Positions 54,018 to 57,161 of a stretch of DNA of 64,000 nucleotides are shown in pieces; within the stretch, counting starts at the first letter, position 1; each line of letters begins with the position of its first letter. The notes beneath the pieces were generated by a model. The model worked only from the letters and a program-made list of their open reading frames with translations, made no database searches and was not told where the DNA came from. The position numbers were made by a program, and so were the translations under genes. Origin of the DNA: Actinocorallia populi (GTDB lineage Bacteria; Actinomycetota; Actinomycetes; Streptosporangiales; Streptosporangiaceae); NCBI RefSeq assembly GCF_002995495.1, contig NZ_PVZV01000001.1, positions 186,001 through 250,000 on the forward strand, read 5' to 3'.

Positions 54018-54695
54018 TCAGCCGCGGGAGCCGGGGCGCTTGGGCGGCCTGATGCGCACCCGCTCGTCCTCGCTGGCGTTCTCGATGTCGTCGAGCTGCG
54101 CGCGGACCGTCTCCCGCAGGTCGTCGTAGTCGCGGAACGAGTGGTCCTTGAACAGGGTGTAGCCCGTCCACATCAGGTTGGCGCACACCCGGGGCGGCAC
54201 CTGGCCCGTCGCCGCGCCCATCCCGACCAGCGCCACCGACGCGATGCCGCCCTGCGCCCTCTCGTTCTGCATGTGGACGGCCTGGAAGGCCGCGGCGCAC
54301 GCCAGTGCCACGTTCAGCGTCCGGCTGACGTCCTGCGCCGAACTCTCCATCGTCGGCGTCGAGATCAGGAACTTCGGGTTGGTCGCCCCGGACGGTACGC
54401 ACACGGCGCTTCCGACCGGCATCCGCCCCTCGAACCGGTCGCGGATCGCCCGCTGGACGCGGAGCTGGATGCCCGCGCCGAGGTGCCGCTTGATGACCGC
54501 GTCGGTCCCGCCGTCCATCCGCCCGCGGGAGTTGGTCGGGGTGACCCAGGCGTCGACGTGCTGGTCGAGGATCGACCCGCGGTGGATGTCGACCTCCGGG
54601 GTGTCGGCGAACGCCGCCAGCCAGGCCTCCACGACTTTCGTGTTGACGTCCGCCAGCACGACCCTGAGCTGCGGTTTCACCCGATCGACGGCCAT
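54018..54695 (-). CDS. Macrodomain (ADP-ribose-binding) protein, divergent partner of the UDG-ART gene
   Basis: 225 residues built around a macrodomain: VDIHRGSILDQHVDAWVTPTNSRGRMDGGTDAVIKRHLG is the strand, N-S and GG loop that hold ADP-ribose (the usual form is D-A-x-V-N-x-A-N-S), and ALVGMGAATGQVPP is the second phosphate loop. Residues near the C-terminus (ETVRAQLDDIENASEDERVRI) are charged and helical. Macrodomains read or remove ADP-ribose. It is encoded back to back with a UDG-ART fusion protein, 285 bases apart, which makes it the probable antidote or eraser. GGAG is six bases before ATG 54695. Confidence 0.9.
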   Translation of the reverse strand: MAVDRVKPQLRVVLADVNTKVVEAWLAAFADTPEVDIHRGSILDQHVDAWVTPTNSRGRMDGGTDAVIKRHLGAGIQLRVQRAIRDRFEGRMPVGSAVCVPSGATNPKFLISTPTMESSAQDVSRTLNVALACAAAFQAVHMQNERAQGGIASVALVGMGAATGQVPPRVCANLMWTGYTLFKDHSFRDYDDLRETVRAQLDDIENASEDERVRIRPPKRPGSRG

Positions 54696-54797
54696 GACTC
54701 ACTCCGGTCTCCAAGAGGGGCTTTCCAACACCGGCGAAACTACCGCGGCCCACCGACAAACCATTACCGGCCGCAGGACCGCGCCCGTTCGGTGCGA

Positions 54798-54826
54798 TTG
54801 CGGGTGTCATACCCCGGTGTTACTCT
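54798..54826 (+). promoter_or_regulatory. Candidate promoter for the UDG-ART gene
   Basis: TTGCGG (54798-54803) and TACTCT (54821-54826) are 17 bases apart, a weak match to a principal-sigma promoter. The resulting leader would be about 145 bases long. Low confidence. Confidence 0.3.
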
Positions 54827-54980
54827 GCCGCGAACCAAGCCCTGAAAGACGATGACCGCGGCGGAAACACCATCCGCTCCCCCGGTTTCCGGACATCGTG
54901 GCCAGGGCTTTTACGCGAGCGATTCCGTCTCGACAGCCCCGTGCCGACAACGGTACTTTTCGCCAATCCTGGAGTCCACG

Positions 54981-56591
54981 ATGAGCGACGCCTCCGACCG
55001 GCCCGACCCGCATGACCCGCTGGCTCTCGCCGAACTCTTCGAGGGCGGCGGCGAGCCGTGGCTGCCCCTGCTGAAGCCGGTCATCGAAGGGAATCCGGCC
55101 GCGGCCACGTTCATCGGCCCCGGCCGCAGCCCGGAGGTCGTGCCCGTGCGGGAACTGACCTTCCAGGCGCTCAAGCCCAACCCGCCGCACAAATGGAAAG
55201 TCGTCGTCTTCGGCCAGAATCCGTATCCGCGCCCCGAGAGCGCCACCGGAATCGCCATGTTCGACAACACCTTCCACGACTGGAAGGACAGCCAGTTCGG
55301 GCGGGTCGTCTCCATCCGCTGCATCATCAAGGCCGCGGCGATGTGGAAATACGGCATCCCCAAGAAGACGCCCATCGCCGATATCCGTGCGCTCCTGAAG
55401 AAGCAGGAGACCGTGCAGCCGCCGGAATGGTTCCAGGCGATGCTCACGCAGGGCGTGCTGCTGCTGAACGCGGCGCTCACCGCCAGCAGCAGCGGCGTGA
55501 TGGCCACCGACCAGCACACCGCGTTCTGGCGCCCGGTCGTCGAGCGGATCGTCGAGGAGATCCTGAAGGCCAAGCAGAACGCCGACGAGGACGACCGGGG
55601 CGTGGTGTTCGCCTGGTGGGGCGTCCACGCCCGCGGCCTCAAGCAGATCGTGCTGCGGCTCCAGCAGAAGTACCCCGACGTCGAGGTCTGCCACATCGAC
55701 CACCCCAACCCCGCGGCGCAGGGCGACATCTTCTGCGACGGAGACCACTTCGGCGCGGTGAACACGGCGCTCAGGTCGCTCGGGGCCGACGAGGTCGACT
55801 GGCTGCCCCGCAAGGGCTGGAACAGGCCCACGTCCCAGGGCGGCGGACCCGACGCGGACACGGCGGAACGCATGGGAGCGTTCATCACCTCCACGATGGA
55901 GGCGCACAAGCTCTACCTCGAACGCCTCGCGAGCGTCAAGGACGAGGGGCTGGTCCTCCCCGCGATCACCGGTGTGTTCGACTCCCCCCTCATGGACTTC
56001 CGCGAGACCATCGCCCCGGTGGCCAAGCTGCTTTCGGGGCTCGACTCCTACGTCCGGCGTTCCTACGAGTTCGGCAAGATGCAGGCGGACGGAGTGACCG
56101 AGGGCCTGTCCGCCGACGAGATCGCGGCGCTCTACCTCTACACCTGCGAATCGGCCTTCTACCGGCAGATCAACGCCACCCTGCGCAACCCCGACCGCAC
56201 CCGGGCCGTCCCGTACCTGCCGTACCTGCGGCTTCTCTTCGCCGCCGTGTCGCGCCTCCCCGCCCGCAGGGAGCCGCTGTGGCGCGGAGTGTCGCTGGAC
56301 CTGCGGGCGCAGTACCCCCTCGGCCGGACCGTGACGTGGTGGGGCGTGTCCTCGTGCACGTCGAAGCTCAGCGTGGCCCGGTCCTTCCTGGGCGGCCGCG
56401 GCAAGCGGACGCTCTTCGAGGTGACCCCCGTGCGCGCCGTGGGCATCCGCGACTTCTCGGCCTTCACCGGCGAGGAGGAGTTCATCCTCCCGCCCGGCAC
56501 CCAGCTCAAGGTGACCGACGTGAAGGCCGAGCGCGGCGGCCTCTACACCGTGAAACTGACCGAGCTCGACGAGCAGCCCCTGATCACGTGA
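54981..56591 (+). CDS. Uracil-DNA-glycosylase-fold / ADP-ribosyltransferase fusion protein
   Basis: 536 residues. The first half (about 60-275) is a family-1 UDG fold: VVVFGQNPYP at 74-83, GVLLLNAALTASS at 158-170 (Asn163 at the uracil-binding position), VVFAWWGVHARGL, and DHPNPAAQGDIFCDGDHFGAVNTAL at 240-264 with the catalytic-loop His241. In Ung the first motif is GQDPYH; here the catalytic Asp is Asn80. The last third is an R-S-ExE ADP-ribosyltransferase: SADEIAALYLYT helix, Arg435 in LWRGV, SSCTS at 457-461, and E498/E500 in GEEEFILPPGT. GGAG at 54971 sets ATG 54981 (an in-frame ATG at 54852 has no ribosome site). Probably a DNA-directed ADP-ribosyltransferase. Confidence 0.87.
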   Translation: MSDASDRPDPHDPLALAELFEGGGEPWLPLLKPVIEGNPAAATFIGPGRSPEVVPVRELTFQALKPNPPHKWKVVVFGQNPYPRPESATGIAMFDNTFHDWKDSQFGRVVSIRCIIKAAAMWKYGIPKKTPIADIRALLKKQETVQPPEWFQAMLTQGVLLLNAALTASSSGVMATDQHTAFWRPVVERIVEEILKAKQNADEDDRGVVFAWWGVHARGLKQIVLRLQQKYPDVEVCHIDHPNPAAQGDIFCDGDHFGAVNTALRSLGADEVDWLPRKGWNRPTSQGGGPDADTAERMGAFITSTMEAHKLYLERLASVKDEGLVLPAITGVFDSPLMDFRETIAPVAKLLSGLDSYVRRSYEFGKMQADGVTEGLSADEIAALYLYTCESAFYRQINATLRNPDRTRAVPYLPYLRLLFAAVSRLPARREPLWRGVSLDLRAQYPLGRTVTWWGVSSCTSKLSVARSFLGGRGKRTLFEVTPVRAVGIRDFSAFTGEEEFILPPGTQLKVTDVKAERGGLYTVKLTELDEQPLIT

Positions 56592-56813: not shown

Positions 56814-57161
56814 ATGATCAGGAGAACGCTCGGCGTCGCGGTCCTCGGCACGGCCCTGCTCGGCGCGCCCGCCATGGCGACCTCGGCGGAGGCCGCCACG
56901 GGCGTCACCGCGTCGGCCCAGGCGTCGGTCCAGGCCCGGGACTGCCGGTGGAAGCACGACTGCGACCGCGACTGGTGGAAGGACCACCACCGCAAGTACT
57001 GGAAGCACCACGGATGGAAGTACCACCACAAGTGGAAGCACCGCCACCACGACAAGTGGGACCACCACGGTAAGTGGCACAGGGGGGACCACCACGACAA
57101 GTGGCGTCACCACGACAAGGGGAGCCACTACGACAAGGGGAGCCACTACAGCAGGTACTGA
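56814..57161 (+). CDS. Secreted histidine/lysine/tryptophan-rich peptide
   Basis: 115 residues. A clean signal peptide (MIRRTLGVAVLGTALLGAPAMATSAEA, cleavage likely after AEA) precedes a low-complexity mature part. Residues 42-115 contain 19 histidines, often as HH pairs in DKW/HHDKW units, many Lys and Trp, and two cysteines (44, 50) in a CRWKHDC loop. Two GSHYDK-type units close the chain. The composition suggests metal binding (Zn, Cu or Ni) or membrane interaction. GGAGG precedes ATG 56814. No relative is recognised. Confidence 0.8.
   Translation: MIRRTLGVAVLGTALLGAPAMATSAEAATGVTASAQASVQARDCRWKHDCDRDWWKDHHRKYWKHHGWKYHHKWKHRHHDKWDHHGKWHRGDHHDKWRHHDKGSHYDKGSHYSRY

What the first reader, a model, noticed from the sequence alone, without database searches (positions are those of the whole stretch)
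54018..56591. Divergent macrodomain and UDG-ADP-ribosyltransferase pair: a candidate new DNA ADP-ribosylation system
Seen: a 536-residue protein with a family-1 uracil-DNA-glycosylase fold (residues 60-275) joined to an R-S-ExE ADP-ribosyltransferase (435-500), and 285 bases away, divergent, a macrodomain protein. Known: macrodomains bind or remove ADP-ribose, DarT/DarG is a toxin-antitoxin pair of a DNA-modifying transferase and macrodomain, and Streptomyces Scabin modifies DNA. Inference: the UDG fold steers the transferase to a base, abasic site or phage uracil DNA and the macrodomain reverses or limits it. The function could be phage defence, toxin-antitoxin or DNA-damage signalling. I know of no published system with this fusion.
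Basis: partly seen in the sequence, partly recalled or inferred. Interest (0 to 1): 0.9.

Follow-up and report, generated by a model that had tools for sequence, protein, structure and literature searches.

The report
DNA-damage-linked UDG–ART–macrodomain module
Actinomycete bacteria carry a small, tightly linked gene pair (sometimes one fused gene) that joins a DNA-repair-like recognition domain, an enzyme that attaches ADP-ribose and a domain that may remove it, apparently under a DNA-damage promoter, which hints at a bacterial look-alike of the PARP damage-signalling system.

Summary
In detail: a 536-aa protein with a uracil-DNA-glycosylase (UDG) fold joined to an R-S-ExE ADP-ribosyltransferase (ART), 285 bp from a divergent macrodomain gene. 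The pairing is real: the macrodomain gene adjoins the fusion in 78 of the 80 best genome-contig loci (the other two start at a contig edge); in 246 Streptomyces genomes the same 41 hold both; in 15 of these all three domains share one reading frame. New here is regulation: the macrodomain gene is preceded by a RecA-NDp (PafBC-type) promoter motif (72 of 79 loci with at most 2 mismatches). In this genome the exact motif occurs six times: here, before recA, uvrB and radA, and before two unknown genes. The UDG domain lacks the usual catalytic Asp (GQNPYP, invariant in 80 rows), yet evolves slowest. The ART resembles arginine-specific protein transferases; no DarT family was hit. I read it as a damage-responsive ADP-ribosylation module: UDG fold as lesion/uracil reader, ART as writer, macrodomain as eraser or reader. 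DNA as the modified substrate and phage defence are not excluded but lack positive support. Activity, target and damage induction are all inferred.

The parts
54018..54695 (-). macrodomain protein, 225 aa (candidate ADP-ribose eraser or reader)
   Evidence: PF01661 E 3e-10; N55, G62, G63 and D65 the same in 78 of 78 relatives
54696..54980 (.). 285-bp intergenic region between the two divergent genes
54737..54759 (-). RecA-NDp/PafBC-type promoter motif TTGTCGGTG-N8-TAGTTT facing the macrodomain gene, starting 64 nt from its start codon
   Evidence: exact match; one of 6 exact matches in the 8.25-Mb genome, backward control 0
54981..56591 (+). UDG-ART fusion protein, 536 aa
55020..55820 (+). UDG-fold domain (about aa 14-280)
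   Evidence: NCBIfam ung models, 5x3g and 3tr7, alignment to housekeeping UNGs
55218..55220 (+). Asn80 codon (GQNPYP), at the place of the catalytic Asp of family-1 UDGs
   Evidence: alignment; N in 80 of 80 rows
56094..56570 (+). ART domain (aa 372-530)
   Evidence: PF01129; Vis E 2.3e-4 with the family profile
56283..56285 (+). Arg435 codon, the R of R-S-E
   Evidence: R in 80 of 80 rows
56472..56480 (+). Glu498-Glu499-Glu500 codons, the E-x-E motif
   Evidence: E498 and E500 in 80 of 80 rows, E499 in 79 of 80

Best explanation
A DNA-damage-responsive ADP-ribosylation module. The UDG-fold domain recognises uracil, an abasic site or another lesion in DNA, with little or no base excision, and brings the R-S-ExE ART to it; the ART adds ADP-ribose to a protein there (itself or a DNA-bound partner, probably on arginine); the macrodomain, made from a damage-activated RecA-NDp/PafBC promoter, removes or reads the mark. 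Shown: domain identities, strict linkage, natural three-domain fusions, active-site substitutions, promoter motif and its company. Inferred: lesion recognition, catalysis by either enzyme, the target, damage induction.
For: Linkage: macrodomain gene next to the fusion in 78 of 80 loci, the other two at contig edges; 10 of 10 genomes; 41 of 246 Streptomyces genomes have the macrodomain and the same 41 have the fusion (40 full length, one split over contigs), 39 of 41 within 0.5 kb. One reading frame for all three domains in 5 of 13 co-directional loci, in 15 of the 41 Streptomyces genomes (in G989 the macrodomain matches only from residue 61), and annotated as one 801-aa protein on a Streptomyces plasmid. 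No other neighbour family in more than 7 of 80 loci. Promoter: motif with at most 2 mismatches before 72 of 79 macrodomain genes, 0.32 expected from shuffles, 38 of 42 exact ones 61-67 nt from the start; 13 of 13 co-directional loci have it exactly, so there it would drive the writer too. In this genome the other five exact sites precede recA, radA, uvrB, a DUF4132 gene and an unknown gene. UDG slowest-evolving part (mean pairwise distance 0.156; ART 0.228; macrodomain 0.273).
Against: No experiment. In the window no good motif faces the writer gene (best 4 mismatches; fusion-facing motif with at most 2 mismatches in 24 of 66 divergent loci), so here the damage promoter would raise the eraser only. 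Seven of 79 macrodomain genes lack the motif, and of 12 relatives searched for exact sites only 4 (G062, G029, G563, G732) have one at the module. Known arginine-specific macrodomains are of another class (MavL/DUF4804; PMC10951314, passages), so writer and eraser chemistry may not match. Asn at the catalytic place is usual in other UDG families (recalled), so excision is not excluded. Distribution is patchy and several copies are broken. The consensus of the motif is recalled, not read.
Confidence: 0.52

Rival explanations
1. DNA (or nucleic-acid) ADP-ribosylation system: the UDG fold flips out a base and the ART modifies DNA there; the macrodomain reverses it, as DarG or TARG1 do for thymidine.
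For: UDG fold fused to ART; macrodomains of the TARG1/DarG/SCO6735 group remove ADP-ribose from DNA thymidine and RNA uracil (PMC9411070, PMC13036486, passages).
Against: ART hits are arginine protein transferases; E-x-E is invariant, whereas DNA-modifying Scabin-type ARTs have Q-x-E (recalled). No DarT family hit. The macrodomain has a MacroD-like Nx6GG loop and no recognisable match to SCO6735 chains in the PDB search.
Confidence: 0.16
2. Toxin-antitoxin or abortive-infection system: UDG-ART is a toxin triggered by uracil-containing or damaged phage DNA (or by a phage UDG inhibitor acting on the UDG-like domain), and the macrodomain is the antitoxin.
For: Patchy spread in changing gene contexts and on four plasmid-collection records; identity does not follow kinship (UDG part 85.4% to Streptomyces G732, 81.3% to same-family G070), which suggests transfer. 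In two recently broken copies (G359, G365) the macrodomain gene is intact while the fusion is broken. Fold matches to an ART toxin/immunity pair.
Against: The UDG part is the most conserved, not the fastest-changing, part. PADLOC gave at most 2 of 135 neighbours per family. No relative of the fusion in phages or viral contigs. Damage promoter on the would-be antitoxin. G063 keeps a second full-length fusion copy with no macrodomain in its 13-kb stretch, though the genome has one elsewhere.
Confidence: 0.2
3. The UDG domain still removes a base (SMUG/TDG-like use of Asn) and the ART modifies repair proteins or caps the resulting abasic site: a two-step repair enzyme.
For: Asn163 and His241, counterparts of the uracil-binding Asn and catalytic His, are invariant; strong conservation.
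Against: Catalytic Asp, the following His, the stacking Phe and the intercalating Leu are all replaced (N80, P83, M93, A245, each 80 of 80 rows), and the Pro-Pro-Ser loop is absent from the alignment. The host has its own canonical UNG.
Confidence: 0.1

Closest known systems
DarT-DarG (and DarT-NADAR) toxin-antitoxin systems
   Same: ADP-ribosyltransferase gene next to a macrodomain (or NADAR) gene; link to DNA is proposed here, shown there
   Different: No DarT-family hit; R-S-ExE ART instead; UDG domain; RecA-NDp-type motif; often one polypeptide
Eukaryotic PARP1/PARP2 with TARG1/PARG-type erasers
   Same: Functional analogy only: DNA-damage reader joined to ART, macrodomain eraser, damage response
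   Different: Reader is a UDG fold, ART is of the arginine-transferase kind; no sequence link tested or claimed
Tre1/Tri1 and related ART toxin/immunity pairs (6drh, 6dre)
   Same: Best Foldseek matches of the ART part (E 2.3e-9, on a low-confidence model); ART with a partner gene
   Different: Eraser here is a macrodomain; no secretion feature seen by eye; UDG domain; damage motif
SCO6735 macrodomain of Streptomyces coelicolor
   Same: Streptomyces macrodomain gene with a RecA-NDp promoter, UV-inducible (PMC5087735, passages)
   Different: 161-aa ALC1/TARG1-branch protein with no writer partner named in the passages I saw; our macrodomain has a MacroD-like loop and a phage-tail-type family (phrog_2613 E 2.2e-37, phrog_14717 tail)
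Family-1 uracil-DNA glycosylases (UNG), 5x3g-type GQDPYPRPESA
   Same: Fold by sequence; motif region FGQxPYPRPESA shared with 5x3g
   Different: Asp to Asn at the catalytic place and HxNPAA in place of HPSPLS

Membership tests
DarTG | DarT-family (PARP-like) transferase | tested here: not met
   no DarT family among Pfam, NCBIfam or PADLOC hits up to E 10; PF01129 instead
DarTG | macrodomain partner encoded next door | tested here: met
   78 of 80 loci, two at contig edges
DarTG | transferase toxic and modifies DNA | not testable with these tools
   needs assay
R-S-ExE (arginine-type) mono-ARTs, PF01129 | family score and R, S, E-x-E motif | tested here: met
   45.8 bits against cut-off 22.3; R435, S457-S458, E498/E500 in 80 of 80 rows
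R-S-ExE (arginine-type) mono-ARTs, PF01129 | transfer to arginine | not testable with these tools
   needs assay
Catalytic family-1 UNG | GQDPYH with catalytic Asp, and HPSPLS | tested here: not met
   GQNPYP and HxNPAA; 80 of 80 rows N80, P83, N243, A245
Catalytic family-1 UNG | uracil-binding Asn and motif-B His | tested here: met
   N163 and H241 in 80 of 80 rows
MacroD-type macrodomain hydrolases (motifs as given in PMC10951314) | Nx(6)GG[V/L/I] | tested here: inconclusive
   N55 and GG in 78 of 78; next residue V 61, L 3, but T 11 (window included in that kind) and A 3
MacroD-type macrodomain hydrolases (motifs as given in PMC10951314) | G[V/I/A][Y/F]G | tested here: not met
   loop reads G-M/L-G-A-x-T-G
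MavL/DUF4804 arginine-specific macrodomains | DUF4804 family or its WDxx[S/A]xPGN motif | tested here: not met
   no DUF4804 among Pfam hits up to E 10; motif absent from the sequence
RecA-NDp / PafBC regulon | promoter motif before the gene | tested here: met
   exact in the window; at most 2 mismatches in 72 of 79 loci against 0.32 in shuffles; same motif before recA, uvrB, radA in this genome
RecA-NDp / PafBC regulon | PafBC-dependent induction by DNA damage | not testable with these tools
   needs expression data
Anti-phage defence system | defence-rich neighbourhood | tested here: inconclusive
   12 PADLOC families, each matching 1 or 2 of 135 nearest neighbours; 13 of 148 candidates left out for length; no control set

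The most novel reading that the evidence does not exclude
A bacterial counterpart of PARP signalling built from unrelated parts: a UDG fold retired from base excision reads uracil or damaged DNA and switches on a fused arginine-type ART, marking proteins at the lesion, while a macrodomain under the RecA-independent (PafBC) damage promoter erases the mark; in some Streptomyces reader, writer and eraser are one polypeptide. It would be one of the undiscovered endogenous protein ADP-ribosyltransferases that PMC5087735 says Streptomyces must have.
Probability: 0.35. Interest if true: 0.93.

Novelty: new variant of a known kind. Interest (0 to 1): 0.8.

Why it matters
Lalic et al. (PMC5087735, passages seen) note that Streptomyces have many ADP-ribose hydrolases while the major protein ADP-ribosyltransferases are 'yet to be uncovered'. 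This module, in about one in six of the Streptomyces genomes sampled (41 of 246), is a concrete endogenous writer tied by gene fusion to its likely eraser and by promoter to DNA damage. [quoted passage not shown]

Tried and rejected
Structure: the first AlphaFold job on the fusion gave mean pLDDT 51.4 with the UDG part mostly below 50, so I do not use it for the UDG; its Foldseek list is used only for the ART part and with caution. A second job on a natural three-domain fusion failed uncounted and a better alignment could not be run, so the macrodomain class and the active-site geometry rest on sequence.

Viral and phage relatives of the fusion: none. LexA box in the intergenic region: 0 of 52. 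A window-side damage motif facing the fusion gene: not found (best 4 mismatches). Housekeeping-UNG misannotation: rejected, the genome has a separate canonical UNG. SCO6735 or MavL identity of the macrodomain: not supported. Decoy in an arms race: less likely because the UDG part is the slowest-evolving, though recent transfer could also keep identity high.

Literature: ten searches. For UDG with ART and macrodomain, searches found 0, 1, 1, 3 and 1 papers; I looked at passages of three of them and at listings only for the rest; none shown describes this architecture. [quoted passage not shown]
Full report
What is there. The window holds a 536-aa ORF (54981-56591, +) and a divergent 225-aa ORF (54018-54695, -) with 285 bases between the start codons. 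The first is a UDG-fold domain (five NCBIfam ung models, E 1.5e-20 to 3.3e-12, below curated cut-offs; solved UDGs) followed by an R-S-ExE ART (PF01129 E 5.9e-12). The second is a macrodomain (PF01661 E 3e-10). No signal peptide is evident by eye.

The pair is a unit. In 10 of 10 genomes of the fusion holders first found, the macrodomain gene lies beside it. In genome contigs 200 relatives were found and the best 80 returned, all in actinomycetes such as Streptomyces, Nonomuraea, Kitasatospora, Micromonospora, Nocardia, Catellatospora and Dactylosporangium. The macrodomain gene adjoins the fusion in 78 of 80; in the other two the contig begins 10 or 16 bases before the match. In 65 of the 78 the genes are divergent, in 13 the macrodomain gene precedes the fusion on the same strand, and in 5 of those 13 all three domains are one open frame of 772-786 codons. 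RefSeq annotation on a Streptomyces plasmid likewise gives a single 801-aa protein. On a tree of 78 tips orientation changes at least twice and fusion at least once. No other neighbouring protein family occurs in more than 7 of the 80 loci.

Genome survey. Of 246 Streptomyces genomes, 40 have a full-length fusion and one (G815) has it split over two contigs; the macrodomain at E 1e-20 or better is in 41 of 246, and these are the same 41 (only part of the first-look candidates was scored per genome). Recounted: 15 single frames (G989 with a macrodomain match only from residue 61), 9 co-directional separate, 16 divergent, and G888 with the genes on different contigs; 39 of 41 are within 0.5 kb and G826 is 2.3 kb apart. 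In the order, 28 of 345 genomes hold a full or nearly full copy and 7 only pieces; in a phylum draw, 3 of 396, this genome included. It is thus patchy, and several copies are decaying: in G359 and G365 the macrodomain gene is intact while the fusion is broken, in G363 both are partial, four others keep only remnants, and G063 has a second fusion copy without a macrodomain gene in its 13-kb stretch. The UDG part of Streptomyces G732 is closer to the window (85.4%) than that of same-family G070 (81.3%), which suggests horizontal transfer. Four records of the plasmid collection carry it (two are of chromosome size), no phage record or viral contig does.

The UDG domain. Against the genome's own canonical UNG and others and in 80 rows, the catalytic Asp is Asn80, the next-but-two His is Pro83, the stacking Phe is Met93 and the intercalating Leu is Ala245, all invariant, while the uracil-binding Asn (N163), the motif-B His (H241) and the Tyr (Y82) are kept. 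Role names are recalled. Yet this domain is the slowest-evolving of the three (mean pairwise distance 0.156, ART 0.228, macrodomain 0.273), and in 11 genomes it is 81-88% identical to the window where the housekeeping UNG is 46-58% identical (transfer of the module would also raise the first figure). That argues for a kept binding role rather than decay. Asn at this place is normal in SMUG/TDG-type enzymes (recalled), so weak excision remains possible.

The ART and macrodomain. With the family profile the best solved ART is the arginine transferase Vis (E 2.3e-4); Foldseek on the low-confidence model puts an ART toxin/immunity pair (6drh, E 2.3e-9) and Vis on top, followed by many other ART toxins. 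E-x-E is invariant. No DarT family was hit. The macrodomain has N55, GG and D65 in 78 of 78 (one relative, L171, has an in-frame stop), a MacroD-like first loop but not the second MacroD signature, and its nearest named families are phage ones (phrog_2613 E 2.2e-37, a tail family E 6.2e-19), with 30-36% identical relatives beside tail-fibre genes. Known arginine-specific macrodomains belong to another class (PMC10951314, passages), so whether it erases the mark of this ART is open.

The promoter. The most shared 8- and 9-mers of 52 divergent intergenic regions spell TTGTCAGTGG toward the macrodomain gene, the RecA-NDp motif (consensus TTGTCRGTG-N8-TAnnnT recalled). It is exact before 42 of 79 macrodomain genes and within 2 mismatches in 72 of 79, against 0.32 in my approximate dinucleotide shuffles; 38 of the 42 start 61-67 nt from the start codon. 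Facing the fusion it is within 2 mismatches in 24 of 66 divergent loci (0.32 in shuffles), but not in the window. In this genome the exact motif occurs 6 times and its backward control 0 times: before this macrodomain gene, recA, radA and uvrB (NCBIfam scores above cut-off), a DUF4132 gene and an unknown gene. In 12 relatives it occurs 4-34 times, control 0, but exactly at the module in only 4. PafBC activates RecA-NDp promoters after DNA damage (PMC6789036, PMC8223512, passages), and the unrelated S. coelicolor macrodomain SCO6735 has such a promoter and is UV-inducible (PMC5087735, passages).

Reading. I think this is a damage-responsive ADP-ribosylation module, with the UDG fold as reader, ART as writer and macrodomain as eraser or reader (0.52). 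Fusion of writer and eraser speaks against a classical toxin-antitoxin pair, and the neighbours are ordinary metabolic and regulatory genes (Pfam list; PADLOC at most 2 of 135 per family, no control). Toxin or defence roles (0.2), DNA modification (0.16) and a two-step repair enzyme (0.1) stay open. No activity, target or induction has been shown.

Novelty. Reversible writer-eraser pairs are known; a UDG-ART fusion, its three-domain form and its damage promoter were not found in the searches named under Tried and rejected, but two likely reviews could not be read. I file it as a new variant of a known kind.

Noticed in passing
L393:1640-2503 and L394:1647-3023 (this genome, contig C5): Two further genes of unknown role, one with DUF4132, carry exact RecA-NDp motifs upstream, about 17 kb apart; candidate uncharacterised damage genes.
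   Followed up: partly
L184 (G063:C8:924000-937000): A second, 71-73% identical full-length UDG-ART copy in a genome that has the pair elsewhere, with no macrodomain gene in the 13-kb stretch.
   Followed up: partly
L177-L183: Broken or remnant copies of the fusion in seven genomes of the order; in two the macrodomain gene is still intact.
   Followed up: partly
L229-L308 (IMG/VR contigs) and phage hits H35-H52: The macrodomain family is shared with phage and prophage genes annotated next to tail-fibre genes (Gifsy-1, SEN4/5, phiM12 and others), 30-36% identical; role unknown.
   Followed up: no
window 56814-57161 (+): Downstream gene for a short, apparently secreted protein very rich in His, Lys and Trp (HHKWKH-like repeats).
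   Followed up: no
L171 (Nocardia crassostreae): Macrodomain gene interrupted by an in-frame stop beside a fusion gene.
   Followed up: no
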